A DNA stretch of 42,243 nucleotides. Source: an uncultured Cetobacterium sp. Lineage in GTDB: Bacteria; Fusobacteriota; Fusobacteriia; Fusobacteriales; Fusobacteriaceae. The notes beneath the pieces were generated by a model that had not been told where the DNA came from, did no database searches, and saw only the letters and a program-made list of their open reading frames with translations. The translations under genes were made by a program, and so were the position numbers. The number at the start of each line of letters is the position of its first letter. The first letter of the stretch is position 1. The DNA lies in contig NZ_CAMTIK010000018.1 in the NCBI RefSeq assembly GCF_947072685.1, positions 1-42,243 of the forward strand. Reading direction: 5' to 3'. Positions 4,307 to 8,085 of this stretch are shown in pieces.

Positions 4307-4897
4307 TTAGTGTGTATAAGAATCTAGGTATAACAAGATTTTTTTCTTGATTCTTTGAATAGTGTTGTCTATTTTTTTAGGTGGTTCGCTTAAAAGTTCA
4401 GCTATTTCAATATACGAGTATTCTTGACAAAGATGTTTAAAAACTTTCTTTTCGAGCCCACTCAAATTTTCACTAAGAAAATCTGTTAAAAGATTAACTA
4501 ACTCTTTACCTAAAAATATATCTTCAGGAGAGTAAAATCTTAGTGATGGAGAGTTATATTTGACACTTTCTTCGTGATTTGAATAACCGTCTCCTTGCAT
4601 AGCTAAATTCAGATTTTTATATTTATCTGAATTGTAATTCTTTACTGCTGTGATCATCTGTCTTCTAATACAAAGATTGGCAAAAGTACTAAAACAAGCA
4701 TTTCTTGTTTCGTCATAGGATTTGATAGCTTTTATAAGCCCTATAAATCCTTCTTGCATTAAATCATCGCTATCGCCACCTTTTAAGAAAAAGGATCTAT
4801 TGTTTCTGTAAATAGTTCCTTGATACTCTTTGATGATTTTTTCGATAGACTCTTCGTTTCCATTTTGTGCTAAAATAATATCTTCTCTTTCAATCAT
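4307..4897 (-). CDS. SigH-like RNA polymerase sigma-70 family factor
   Basis: This 196-residue protein is a sigma factor lacking region 1. Region 2 spans about residues 20-90, with DDLMQEGFIGLIKAIKSYDE as the core-binding part and FSTFANLCIRRQMITAVK as the -10-recognition/melting part. Region 4 lies at the C-terminus (LSGLEKKVFKHLCQEYSYIEIAELL...IDNTIQRIKKK). Length and both motifs resemble Bacillus SigH, the transition/early sporulation and competence factor, more than ECF sigmas. GGGGGACGG precedes the ATG. No anti-sigma gene is adjacent; its head faces the encapsulin operon across 269 bases. The regulon is unknown, and Fusobacteriota are not known to sporulate. Confidence 0.85.
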   Translation of the reverse strand: MIEREDIILAQNGNEESIEKIIKEYQGTIYRNNRSFFLKGGDSDDLMQEGFIGLIKAIKSYDETRNACFSTFANLCIRRQMITAVKNYNSDKYKNLNLAMQGDGYSNHEESVKYNSPSLRFYSPEDIFLGKELVNLLTDFLSENLSGLEKKVFKHLCQEYSYIEIAELLSEPPKKIDNTIQRIKKKILLYLDSYTH

Positions 4898-5166
4898 AGT
4901 TCCGTCCCCCGACTTCTCAGAAATTAAAATAAAATAGTTATAAATTAGCTGACATTTTAAACAACCACATACCTAAATTTAAATTCACACACAACTTTTA
5001 CTAGATAATGATACCATTTAAAGGAGAAAATATCTATATTCCAAATTTTCTTAAATTACAATATTATTTGATATATATTCTGAAAAAATTTAAAAAAATA
5101 ATAAAAAAAGGAAAAGAAGTATCGGAATAATATAAACAGTAATAAGTAGTAAGTGGAGGTGTTTAT

Positions 5167-5520
5167 ATGTTAAGTGGAATCAGCAAAAAAGCAGCGGACT
5201 TAGATTTTGCAATACAAAGCTTAAAAGAGGAGTTACAAGCGGTGGATGACTATAATCAAAGAGCTGAGATGGCGGTTGACCCTGAGCTCAAAGAGATTAT
5301 GCTACACAATAGAAATGAGGAGATGGAACATGCGGCGATGATAGTTGAATGGATTCGTAGAAATCAATTGGAATTTGGTGGGGAGATTGAGGATTATCTT
5401 TTCACTCAAGGGAAAATAATAGGCGTGGAAGCTCAGCTGATGGGAAGAGTTTCTGGCGGAGAGGATAAACCGACCGAAAAAGCTTCAAGTTTGTCGTTGA
5501 ATATAGGTTCTTTAAAATAG
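5167..5520 (+). CDS. Encapsulated ferritin-like cargo protein (EncFtn)
   Basis: EncFtn proteins are half-ferritins that form an annular decamer with a ferroxidase centre at dimer interfaces, and are loaded into an encapsulin shell to mineralise iron. This 117-residue protein has the two-helix core with E22, Y29, and the HNRNEEMEHAAM motif giving E51, E52, E54 and H55, which line up with the metal ligands of the Rhodospirillum rubrum protein from memory. The tail after residue 88 is a flexible linker ending in SLSLNIGSLK, a typical encapsulin-targeting peptide. The usual Trp of the EAVDWY motif is Asp here (AVDDY, residue 28). The shell gene starts 23 bases downstream, which strongly supports the role. 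Confidence 0.93.
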   Translation: MLSGISKKAADLDFAIQSLKEELQAVDDYNQRAEMAVDPELKEIMLHNRNEEMEHAAMIVEWIRRNQLEFGGEIEDYLFTQGKIIGVEAQLMGRVSGGEDKPTEKASSLSLNIGSLK

Positions 5521-5543
5521 AGAGATATTTAGGAGGTATAGAG

Positions 5544-6329
5544 ATGGATTTTTTAAAAAAGGAGCTAGCTCCAATAAGTGCAAAAGTTTGGGAAGAGATA
5601 GAAGAAAGAGCAAAAGAGGTCTTAGGAACACAACTTTCAGCTAGAAGGTTTGTTAGAGTAACAGGACCTATTGGAAAGGAAAAAGGAGGAGTGAATTCGG
5701 GAAGATTATCCATTCAAACTGAGGATGGAATATCTTATGGAATCCATCAAATTCAACCTTTTGTAGAAAATAGAATAACATTTAAATTGAATAGATGGGA
5801 ACTGGATAACATTGAAAGGGGAGCAAAAGATATTGATTATACAAATTTGGACGAAGCTTTAAAGAAGGCTGCTAAATTTGAGGAGAAAGCTGTTTTTTCT
5901 GGACTTGACAAAGCCTGTATAGTTGGTCTTTTAAAAGGTGAAAAAGAAAGATTGGAGTTTGGAAAAACGGAAGCAGAAACTATAAAAAACTTGATGTATG
6001 GGGTATCGAAATTAAGAAATACAGGATTTAGTAAAGGACCTTATGCTCTGGTTGTAGGACTTGAGAAATTTATTTATTTAAATATGATAAATTTAAATGA
6101 TTCTTTAGCAAAAAGATTGGAAAAGATATTGGGTATGCCAATAATAGTATCAAATACCATAACAGAAGCTATTATGTTACCGTTTGACAATGAAAATATT
6201 GAGTTGATTTTAGGCGAGGATTTCTCTTTAGGTTATCAAGGTCATGACAATAAAGAGGTTGAATTATTTGTGACTGAAACATTTACATTTAGAATTCTAG
6301 ACAACACAAGAGTAATAGCGTATAAATAA
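5544..6329 (+). CDS. Encapsulin shell protein (family 1, HK97 fold)
   Basis: Encapsulins are HK97-like proteins that self-assemble into icosahedral compartments (usually 60-mers for this size) around cargo bearing a C-terminal targeting tag. The 261-residue length and N-terminus (FLKKELAPISAKVWEEIEERA, then TQLSARRFVRVTGPIG) fit the linocin M18/encapsulin family. A later P-domain/A-domain region includes GPYALVVGLEKF, and the C-terminus has ELFVTETFTFRIL. An AGGAGG site precedes the ATG. It is cotranscribed with the EncFtn cargo gene and ends at a strong hairpin terminator. Predicted role is iron storage and oxidative protection in the cytoplasm. The older label 'bacteriocin' for this family is not supported. 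Confidence 0.94.
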   Translation: MDFLKKELAPISAKVWEEIEERAKEVLGTQLSARRFVRVTGPIGKEKGGVNSGRLSIQTEDGISYGIHQIQPFVENRITFKLNRWELDNIERGAKDIDYTNLDEALKKAAKFEEKAVFSGLDKACIVGLLKGEKERLEFGKTEAETIKNLMYGVSKLRNTGFSKGPYALVVGLEKFIYLNMINLNDSLAKRLEKILGMPIIVSNTITEAIMLPFDNENIELILGEDFSLGYQGHDNKEVELFVTETFTFRILDNTRVIAYK

Positions 6330-6367
6330 AAAAATGGCTAACCTCATTGAAGGTTAGCCGTTTTTTT
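6329..6367. terminator. Bidirectional terminator after the encapsulin gene
   Basis: GGCTAACCT (6336-6344) pairs with AGGTTAGCC (6351-6359), flanked by an A-run on the left and a T-run on the right, so it works for both converging genes. The T-run overlaps the stop codon of the minus-strand gene. Confidence 0.88.
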
Positions 6368-7064
6368 ATATATCAAATTTATAACCTACAGAAAGAGTTA
6401 CTCTTTGGTAGTTGTTATCAATTTTTTCATTGTTAGTTTTTAATTTAGCGTAGTTAACACCATAAAGAACATCTACATTAACGTTTTGATATTCTGCTCC
6501 TAAACCAGCTGCCCAGTAAGCTCCATCATCAATAGATGCAGACCCTTTGTGTATTCCAGAGTTTATATCTTTTTGATCAAAGTTGAAAGAGTATCCAGCA
6601 TTAGCTTTTAAGTATGGTGTAAATGGAAGGTTGAAGTAATCCATGTTGTGTCTAGCAGTTAAATAAACTGGTATAGATTTATATTCTCCACCGTCTGCAC
6701 TACCATCTCTTTTAGCATGACTTTGATAAGCCACTCCTAAACCTAAATCAACATACTGATAAGGTTTGTATGCTTCTGCAGCAATTTCATATCCAAGATC
6801 TTTTGTATTCTTATTTAAGAATTCATGTTTGCTATATCTAGACCAAACATCTCCTCCAACTCTTAAGTTGATGTAGCTAGGTAGTTGTTCAGCGATAACA
6901 GGAGCAGGAGCTTCTGTAACTAAAGTTACTTCCTCGATAACTTCAACAGGTTCAGATATAACCTCTTTTGAGCTTGTGATAACAGGTTGTTGAACAATTT
7001 CTTTAGCTTGTGCTATGCTTCCGATAGAAAGTAATGCACAAGTAAGTAGTGCTAATTTTTTCAT
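6366..7064 (-). CDS. Small outer-membrane beta-barrel-like protein (paralogue A)
   Basis: The 232-residue protein begins with a clear signal peptide cleaved after AQA (residue 20). A low-complexity, Val/Glu/Pro-rich segment (about 21-60) comes next, then alternating hydrophobic/polar strands (YINLRVGGDVW, YVDLGLGVAYQSH, YLTARHNMDYF, YLKANAGYSFNF, WAAGLGAEYQ, VDVLYGVNYA). It ends in RVTLSVGYKFDI, a terminal barrel strand. I infer an 8-10 strand outer-membrane barrel; substrate or role is not visible. It is a close paralogue of the next gene upstream, including near-identical 3' ends. It has its own promoter and structured leader. Confidence 0.8.
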   Translation of the reverse strand: MKKLALLTCALLSIGSIAQAKEIVQQPVITSSKEVISEPVEVIEEVTLVTEAPAPVIAEQLPSYINLRVGGDVWSRYSKHEFLNKNTKDLGYEIAAEAYKPYQYVDLGLGVAYQSHAKRDGSADGGEYKSIPVYLTARHNMDYFNLPFTPYLKANAGYSFNFDQKDINSGIHKGSASIDDGAYWAAGLGAEYQNVNVDVLYGVNYAKLKTNNEKIDNNYQRVTLSVGYKFDI

Positions 7065-7326: not shown

Positions 7327-8085
7327 TTATTGGATGTCAAATTTATAACCTACAGAAAGAGTAACTCTCTCGTAGTCGTTATCAAATTTATCCGATCCTC
7401 CTGTTGGGTTATCAACTTTAGTTTTAGCGTAGTTAGCTCCATAAAGAACATCTACGTTGAAGTCTTCATATTGAACACCAAATCCAGCTGCCCAGTATAG
7501 ACCGTCGTCAACTTTAGTTCCATAACTAGTAGATCCAGCATCAACATCTTTTGAATTGAAATTGAAAGAGTATCCAAGGTTAGCTTTTAAATATGGAGTA
7601 GCTGCCCAATCCCAATAGTTTATATTATATCTACCAGTTACATAAATAGGTACAGATTTATATTCAGCACCTGAATAATCTACAGATTCGAAATTACTAG
7701 TTTTTCTTTTCATATGACTTTGATAAGCAACTCCAAGTCCTAAATCCACATAATCCCAATGCTTATAAGCTTCAATTGCTAGTTCTCCACCAAAATCTTT
7801 AGTCTTTTTAGAAAGAGTTGTATCATATGTTTCATGTCTTTTGAAATTTCCATATTCACCCCAGAAATCCCATCCAGCTCTTAGGTTAACATATCCCCAA
7901 GGATTTTCAACAACTGGAGCAACAATAACTTCTTCTACAACTATTGGCTCAACAAGAACCTCTTTAGAACTGACAGGGGCTGCCATAACCTCTTTGGATC
8001 TGCTTACAGGAGTCATAGCCTCTTTGGCTTGTGCTACTGCAGTAAAAGCGAATAAAGAACATGCTAAAAGTGTTAATTTTTTCAT
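7327..8085 (-). CDS. Small outer-membrane beta-barrel-like protein (paralogue B)
   Basis: The 252-residue protein has the same plan as paralogue A. There is a signal peptide to AQA (residue 20), then a repetitive Ser-Lys-Glu-Val segment (SRSKEVM, SSKEVLVEPIVVEEV) that may be periplasmic or surface exposed. After that come barrel-type strands (YVNLRAGWDFW, YVDLGLGVAYQSH, YLKANLGYSFNF, WAAGFGVQYE, VDVLYGANYA) ending in RVTLSVGYKFDIQ. An AGGAGG site precedes the ATG. Identity with A is strongest at the C-terminal half, which points to tandem duplication. No function can be assigned beyond outer-membrane protein. Confidence 0.8.
   Translation of the reverse strand: MKKLTLLACSLFAFTAVAQAKEAMTPVSRSKEVMAAPVSSKEVLVEPIVVEEVIVAPVVENPWGYVNLRAGWDFWGEYGNFKRHETYDTTLSKKTKDFGGELAIEAYKHWDYVDLGLGVAYQSHMKRKTSNFESVDYSGAEYKSVPIYVTGRYNINYWDWAATPYLKANLGYSFNFNSKDVDAGSTSYGTKVDDGLYWAAGFGVQYEDFNVDVLYGANYAKTKVDNPTGGSDKFDNDYERVTLSVGYKFDIQ

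What the first reader, a model, noticed from the sequence alone, without database searches (positions are those of the whole stretch)
5167..6329. Encapsulin nanocompartment with EncFtn iron cargo in a probable Fusobacteriota genome
Cargo (EncFtn motif plus C-terminal SLNIGSLK tag) and shell gene are adjacent, with no flp/peroxidase cargo. The pair forms a complete minimal iron-storage organelle. The system type is known from other phyla; its occurrence and physiology in this lineage seem little studied.
Basis: partly seen in the sequence, partly recalled or inferred. Interest (0 to 1): 0.6.

Follow-up and report, generated by a model that had tools for sequence, protein, structure and literature searches.

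The report
Iron-storing protein shell in Cetobacterium
A fish-gut bacterium and its genus carry a two-gene iron-storage shell of a known type, but in this genus the enzyme inside has lost a key residue at the gate where iron is thought to enter.

Summary
Window 5167-5520 encodes an EncFtn cargo with a C-terminal SLNIGSLK tag, and 5544-6329 a family 1 encapsulin shell, 23 bases apart. The genome is Fusobacteriota and best named Cetobacterium. The pair is not an isolated occurrence: 25 of 98 Fusobacteriota genomes carry both genes, always adjacent (26 of 26 loci), including 11 of 12 in the genus. The system type is well known, and the shell gene of a Cetobacterium strain is already in print under the old name 'Linocin M18 bacteriocin' (PMC10745334). 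What is new here is in the cargo. The ferroxidase residues are intact, but the metal-entry ('C') site is altered. The acidic residue 34 (R. rubrum numbering), called highly conserved in a 2024 review, is Gln (10) or Ile (1) in all 11 Cetobacterium proteins, always with Asp at 38; 62 of 63 other EncFtn proteins compared keep Glu/Asp at 34 and none has Asp at 38. R. rubrum E31A and E34A variants are reported to raise ferroxidase activity, so these look like natural gate variants. The effect on iron flux is inferred, not tested.

The parts
5167..5520 (+). EncFtn-type encapsulated ferritin cargo, 117 aa
   Evidence: PF22277 E 1.8e-30; PDB relatives R. rubrum, H. ochraceum and N. europaea EncFtn; AF2 model, main helices pLDDT above 90, Foldseek best hits are R. 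rubrum EncFtn chains, TM to target 0.8-0.87
5230..5253 (+). Residues E22 to Y29: ferroxidase E22 and Y29 kept; entry-site residue 34 (R. rubrum numbering) is Q24 and residue 38 is D28
   Evidence: Alignment to R. rubrum EncFtn; sequence
5305..5331 (+). Residues H47 to H55, motif HxxxEExEH: outer metal sites H47, E51, E54 and ferroxidase E52, H55
   Evidence: Invariant in the 13-row alignment and in every strong EncFtn hit
5494..5517 (+). C-terminal targeting peptide SLNIGSLK
   Evidence: Sequence; aligns with H. ochraceum SLGIGSLR and R. rubrum SLGIGSLK; pattern once in genome
5544..6329 (+). Family 1 encapsulin shell protein, 261 aa, HK97-type by family; Trp85 aligns with the flavin-stacking Trp of T. 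maritima encapsulin
   Evidence: PF04454 E 1.7e-66, NF041155 above cut-off, nearest solved relative T. maritima encapsulin E 1e-52, Trp alignment
6337..6367 (+). Intrinsic-terminator-like hairpin (GGCTAACCT / AGGTTAGCC, then seven T) 3' of the shell gene
   Evidence: Read directly
5031..5050 (+). Block (TATCTATATTCCAAATTTTC) conserved upstream of the cargo gene in most of 11 Cetobacterium; regulatory role unproven
   Evidence: Upstream alignment of 11 genus members; the block is recognisable in 10, not in G013

Best explanation
This is a two-gene family 1 encapsulin iron store. The EncFtn cargo (annular decamer in its relatives) is pulled into the shell by SLNIGSLK, oxidises Fe(II) at a dimer-interface ferroxidase centre (E22, E52, H55, Y29, all kept) and lets ferric mineral accumulate in the shell. 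In Cetobacterium the metal-entry C site on the inside of the ring has lost its conserved residue-34 carboxylate (Gln or Ile) and gained an Asp one helical turn on, at 38. I infer that this removes or moves the metal-holding 'valve' and so changes iron flux into the centre. Shown: genes, tag, residues and their conservation. Inferred: assembly, loading, mineral storage, the effect of the altered site.
For: Family matches; closest solved relatives are T. maritima shell and R. rubrum / H. ochraceum EncFtn; predicted two-helix fold matches EncFtn chains. Cargo and shell adjacent in 26 of 26 Fusobacteriota loci, 2-33 bases apart. Ferroxidase and outer-site residues kept in all strong hits; residue 34 non-acidic in 11 of 11 Cetobacterium, acidic in 62 of 63 others; Asp38 in 11 of 11 against 0 of 63. 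Review PMC11202242 section 5: Glu34/Asp34 highly conserved, E31A and E34A raise ferroxidase activity. No FtnA- or Bfr-type ferritin found in this genome: its two PF00210 hits are a Dps-like protein and a rubrerythrin.
Against: No protein data. The 11 Cetobacterium sequences share descent, so residue 34 was probably lost once there, and once more in the duplicate copy of G044: two events at most in what I saw. The comparison set covers three other phyla, one viral contig and three PDB proteins, not the whole family. Asp38 may simply take over the carboxylate role, leaving flux unchanged. The review itself prefers the outer (C') site as entrance and says the C site is not present in all EncFtns. 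NCBIfam TIGR04535 scores below its cut-off.
Confidence: 0.85

Rival explanations
1. Carboxylate relocation without functional change: Asp38 replaces Glu34 as ligand of the inner metal site, so the gate works as in R. rubrum.
For: Asp38 accompanies loss of acid 34 in 11 of 11 Cetobacterium; residues 34 and 38 are one helical turn apart; the E31 position is kept.
Against: The G044 second copy lost acid 34 with Arg, not Asp, at 38, so a replacement carboxylate is not obligatory. No structure of the dimer could be made here.
Confidence: 0.4
2. Residue 34 is unimportant drift: the C site is not the entrance (the outer HxxxEExEH site is) and the change has no effect.
For: Review PMC11202242 argues for the outer site as entry; that site is intact here.
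Against: Acid at 34 is kept in 62 of 63 other proteins, and the Gln/Asp pair is the same in 10 of 11 Cetobacterium genomes with the gene.
Confidence: 0.25
3. The shell gene encodes a secreted bacteriocin (Linocin M18), as annotated for Cetobacterium sp. C33.
For: Old family name PF04454 Linocin_M18; PMC10745334 reports it as a bacteriocin (passages).
Against: Adjacent tagged ferroxidase cargo in 26 of 26 loci, tag divergent in two; NCBIfam equivalog is the encapsulin shell; 'bacteriocin' is called a false annotation in PMC8346489.
Confidence: 0.02
4. The shell-bound flavin, not O2 alone, is part of the redox path in these anaerobes: Trp85 stacks FMN and helps oxidation or iron release.
For: Trp at the T. 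maritima W90 position in 26 of 26 Fusobacteriota shells; PMC8610991 reports that W90 shells carry FLP cargo and come almost all from anaerobes (passages).
Against: That paper found no difference between wild type and W90E in iron storage or release. My shells were picked by a pattern that included this Trp, so the count outside Fusobacteriota is biased.
Confidence: 0.2

Closest known systems
Rhodospirillum rubrum EncFtn (Rru_A0973) and its encapsulin
   Same: Cargo fold, ferroxidase E32/Y39/E62/H65, outer site H57/E61/E64, C-terminal tag
   Different: C site E31-x-x-E34 with W38 is E21-x-x-Q24 with D28 here; about 46% identity over the domain
Thermotoga maritima encapsulin with FLP cargo
   Same: Closest solved shell, E 1.2e-52; flavin-stacking Trp at the aligned place
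   Different: Cargo residues of T. maritima were not compared here; flavin binding untested in Cetobacterium
Haliangium ochraceum encapsulin:EncFtn
   Same: Tag core LxIGSL and cargo fold; cryo-EM shows the tag in a hydrophobic P-domain pocket (PMC8791618, passages)
   Different: C site is canonical EXXE with W38
Other Fusobacteriaceae EncFtn/encapsulin pairs (e.g. handles G041, G053)
   Same: Same gene order, shells form one clade with support 99/95
   Different: Canonical E34/W38 (or D34/V38 in genus g4, E34/F38 in G049, I34/R38 in the second copy of G044); only Cetobacterium has Gln or Ile with Asp38

Membership tests
Family 1 encapsulin | Shell protein of the Linocin_M18 / encap_f1 family over its full length | tested here: met
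   PF04454 positions 1-253 of 253; NF041155 220.5 bits against cut-off 100
Family 1 encapsulin | Cargo gene directly upstream with a C-terminal targeting peptide | tested here: met
   Gap of 23 bases, SLNIGSLK at the C-terminus
Family 1 encapsulin | Self-assembly into an icosahedral compartment with bound cargo | not testable with these tools
   Needs purification and EM; no complex could be modelled
EncFtn (encapsulated ferritin) | EncFtn-like domain, two-helix fold | tested here: met
   PF22277 105 bits against 27; model matches R. rubrum EncFtn chains
EncFtn (encapsulated ferritin) | Ferroxidase residues E32, Y39, E62, H65 | tested here: met
   E22, Y29, E52, H55 in the alignment
EncFtn (encapsulated ferritin) | NCBIfam TIGR04535 curated cut-off | tested here: not met
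   112.2 bits, cut-off 125; an annotation threshold for a subfamily model, while the Pfam family cut-off is passed
EncFtn (encapsulated ferritin) | C (entry) site with acidic residue 34; common but not defining, according to PMC11202242 | tested here: not met
   Gln24
EncFtn (encapsulated ferritin) | Decamer with ferroxidase activity | not testable with these tools
   Biochemistry needed
Bacteriocin (Linocin M18) | Secreted antibacterial activity | not testable with these tools
   Name only; encapsulin equivalog model fits

The most novel reading that the evidence does not exclude
Cetobacterium has a naturally 'un-gated' or re-gated encapsulated ferritin: the inner metal valve was dismantled (acid 34 lost) and partly rebuilt one turn away (Asp38) in the genus ancestor, in a genome where I found no FtnA-type ferritin, giving a faster or differently selective iron sink suited to a fish-gut anaerobe. 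The duplicate copy in G044 (Ile34, Arg38) would be an independent second case with opposite charge.
Probability: 0.3. Interest if true: 0.55.

Novelty: new variant of a known kind. Interest (0 to 1): 0.36.

Why it matters
Where iron enters EncFtn is disputed between an inner C site and an outer C' site (PMC11202242). A whole genus that lost the conserved acid of the inner site while keeping the outer one is a natural experiment on that dispute, with canonical relatives in the same family as controls. It also corrects a published reading of the shell gene as a bacteriocin trait of a Cetobacterium strain, and suggests that the encapsulin may be the main mineral iron store of a common fish-gut genus.

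Tried and rejected
Second cargo elsewhere in the genome: strict tag pattern 1 match (this gene); loose pattern 5 matches, none other at the end of a listed ORF. Rejected for this pattern only; a more divergent tag was not excluded.

Does the encapsulin replace classical ferritin across the phylum? PF00210 matches stronger than E 1e-35 occur in 5 of 25 genomes with the pair and 34 of 73 without (read off; Fisher p 0.03). Three such hits, taken as examples, match the non-heme ferritin model best, though below its cut-off. The threshold is mine, chosen at a gap in the list, and relatedness is not controlled, so I claim only the absence in this genome, not a general replacement.

Fur-type box upstream: a GATAATGATA half-site at about 5004-5013 has no good second half and is variable across the genus; not claimed.

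Horizontal gain by Cetobacterium: not favoured; all 26 Fusobacteriota shells form one clade apart from Spirochaetota, Bipolaricaulota and one Clostridia shell (99/95). The tree root is a drawing midpoint and no species tree was compared.

The second structure job was not used.

EncFtn survey in plasmids gave 2 records and in viral contigs 1. The second plasmid record (Aquincola, 43% of query) was not aligned. From low-scoring matches were left out of the panel: 6 Spirochaetota matches listed without a locus and 6 Bipolaricaulota matches below cut-off.

Full report
What is there. Two + strand genes, 5167-5520 and 5544-6329, are separated by 23 bases. The first matches Pfam EncFtn-like (E 1.8e-30) and the second Linocin_M18 (E 1.7e-66). 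NCBIfam names the second a family 1 encapsulin shell above its cut-off; the first matches TIGR04535 (encapsulin-associated ferritin-like protein) at 112 bits, below that model's cut-off of 125. A terminator-like hairpin follows the shell gene at 6337-6367 (read). The own genome holds one shell gene and one EncFtn gene.

Organism. The nearest named shells are from Cetobacterium metagenome-assembled genomes (77-83% identity). One of them, L056, lies in genome G098, whose EncFtn match has the same contig, place and score as that of G012, a member of the window's genus, so I take the genus to be Cetobacterium.

Spread. Of 98 Fusobacteriota genomes searched, 26 match the shell family and 25 match the EncFtn family. 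The odd one out is G084, with only a weak partial shell-family match (26 bits). G053 has a second weak partial match (40.6 bits) and G044 has two full pairs. In all 26 loci with both genes the cargo lies upstream of the shell, 2-33 bases away by mechanically chosen starts. In the genus, 11 of 12 genomes have the pair; the twelfth (G014) is 1.2 Mb and 82% complete and lacks both. The 26 shells form one clade against 17 outside shells (99/95).

Cargo residues. Aligned to R. rubrum EncFtn, the window protein keeps E31, E32, Y39, H57, E61, E62, E64 and H65 (as E21, E22, Y29, H47, E51, E52, E54, H55). It changes E34 to Gln24 and W38 to Asp28. Ten of 11 Cetobacterium proteins have Gln/Asp and one (G013) Ile/Asp. 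Among 63 other proteins in the panel, 62 have Glu or Asp at 34 and none has Asp at 38. The 63 are 15 other Fusobacteriota loci, 10 strong and 20 weak Spirochaetota, 7 strong and 6 weak Bipolaricaulota, 1 Clostridia, 1 viral contig and 3 PDB proteins. The exception at 34 is the second copy of G044 (Ile34, Arg38). The weak hits belong to another EncFtn class (Gly or Ala at 31, DxxxEExAH or DxxxEExTH in place of HxxxEExEH); without them the count is 36 of 37.

Why that site matters. The eLife 2016 structure paper (PMC5012862, passages) places a calcium ion between Glu31 and Glu34 of two chains and proposes an entry site that acts as selectivity filter and gate. The 2024 review (PMC11202242; section 5 part 1, section 8 and passages) says Glu34 or Asp34 is highly conserved, that E31A and E34A raise ferroxidase activity, and that the site both attracts ions and restricts flow. 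It also says the site is absent in some EncFtns and prefers an outer entrance. I recall that W38 was studied as part of the same site in a 2020 JBC paper; that paper is not held and I did not see it.

Fold. The AF2 model (13-row alignment, mean pLDDT 74.5, main helices above 90, tail below 50) matches R. rubrum EncFtn chains first by Foldseek, E about 1e-6, TM to target 0.8-0.87. That the E34A variant heads the list means nothing by itself.

Shell. Trp85 aligns with the Trp in the LWELDN stretch of T. maritima encapsulin. I take this to be the flavin-stacking W90 of PMC8610991 (passages), residue 87 by my count in the chain, an inference from numbering. It is Trp in 26 of 26 Fusobacteriota shells and 17 of 17 outside shells, but my shell-finding pattern required that Trp; two outside loci gave no shell by that pattern. 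The paper reports W90 mostly in anaerobes and no effect of W90E on iron storage or release.

Iron context. PF00210 gives two hits in this genome: a Dps-like protein and a rubrerythrin (the names come from NCBIfam, rubrerythrin above and Dps below its cut-off). No FtnA- or Bfr-type ferritin was found, so the encapsulin may be the main mineral store. This is inference.

In print. Encapsulin with Cetobacterium: 0 papers. Encapsulin with Ilyobacter: 0. Encapsulin with Fusobacteri*: 2, each holding either word once (listing only). But the Cetobacterium sp. C33 genome paper reports Linocin M18 as a bacteriocin and mentions nanocompartments and ferritin-like proteins (PMC10745334, passages). A C. ceti genome paper has one ferritin mention, dps (PMC13346224, passages). 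Andreas and Giessen find family 1 in 31 of the 35 prokaryotic phyla with encapsulin-like operons; their main text does not name Fusobacteria (PMC8346489, passages), and figures and supplements were not seen.

Verdict. An ordinary, well-conserved EncFtn encapsulin with one real and mechanistically interesting variation at the disputed metal entrance.

Noticed in passing
window 4307-4897 (-): A divergent sigma-70-family factor (196 aa, SigH-like by NCBIfam but under the equivalog cut-offs) lies just upstream of the pair in 9 of 11 Cetobacterium loci; in G011 the contig ends inside it, and G013 differs.
   Followed up: partly
window 6366-7064 and 7327-8085 (-): Two similar small outer-membrane beta-barrel-like proteins in tandem. 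The first matches OMP_b-brl and, in its first 46 residues, FomA-family models weakly; a similar MKKL... protein follows the pair in 10 of 11 Cetobacterium loci, the eleventh contig (G008) being too short.
   Followed up: no
L024, L025 (genus g5, genomes G034 and G031): EncFtn cargo whose C-terminus is DDSDDIFLK / EDSDNIFLK in place of the usual LxIGSLK tag, next to the most diverged shells of the family: tag and shell groove may have changed together.
   Followed up: partly
L006 / L054 (G044, second copy): A second complete cargo-shell pair whose cargo has Ile34 and Arg38, an independent loss of the acidic entry-site residue.
   Followed up: partly
window 5004-5050: Conserved upstream blocks in an otherwise fast-changing AT-rich spacer of the genus (TATCTATATTTCAAATTTTC-like, and a variable GATATTATAATATC-like dyad about 25 bases before it); regulator unknown.
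   Followed up: no
G004-G008, G010-G012 cargo C-termini: Extra residues after the tag in 8 of 11 Cetobacterium cargos (G, K, or SKGGK after SLNIGSLK), so the tag need not be terminal.
   Followed up: no
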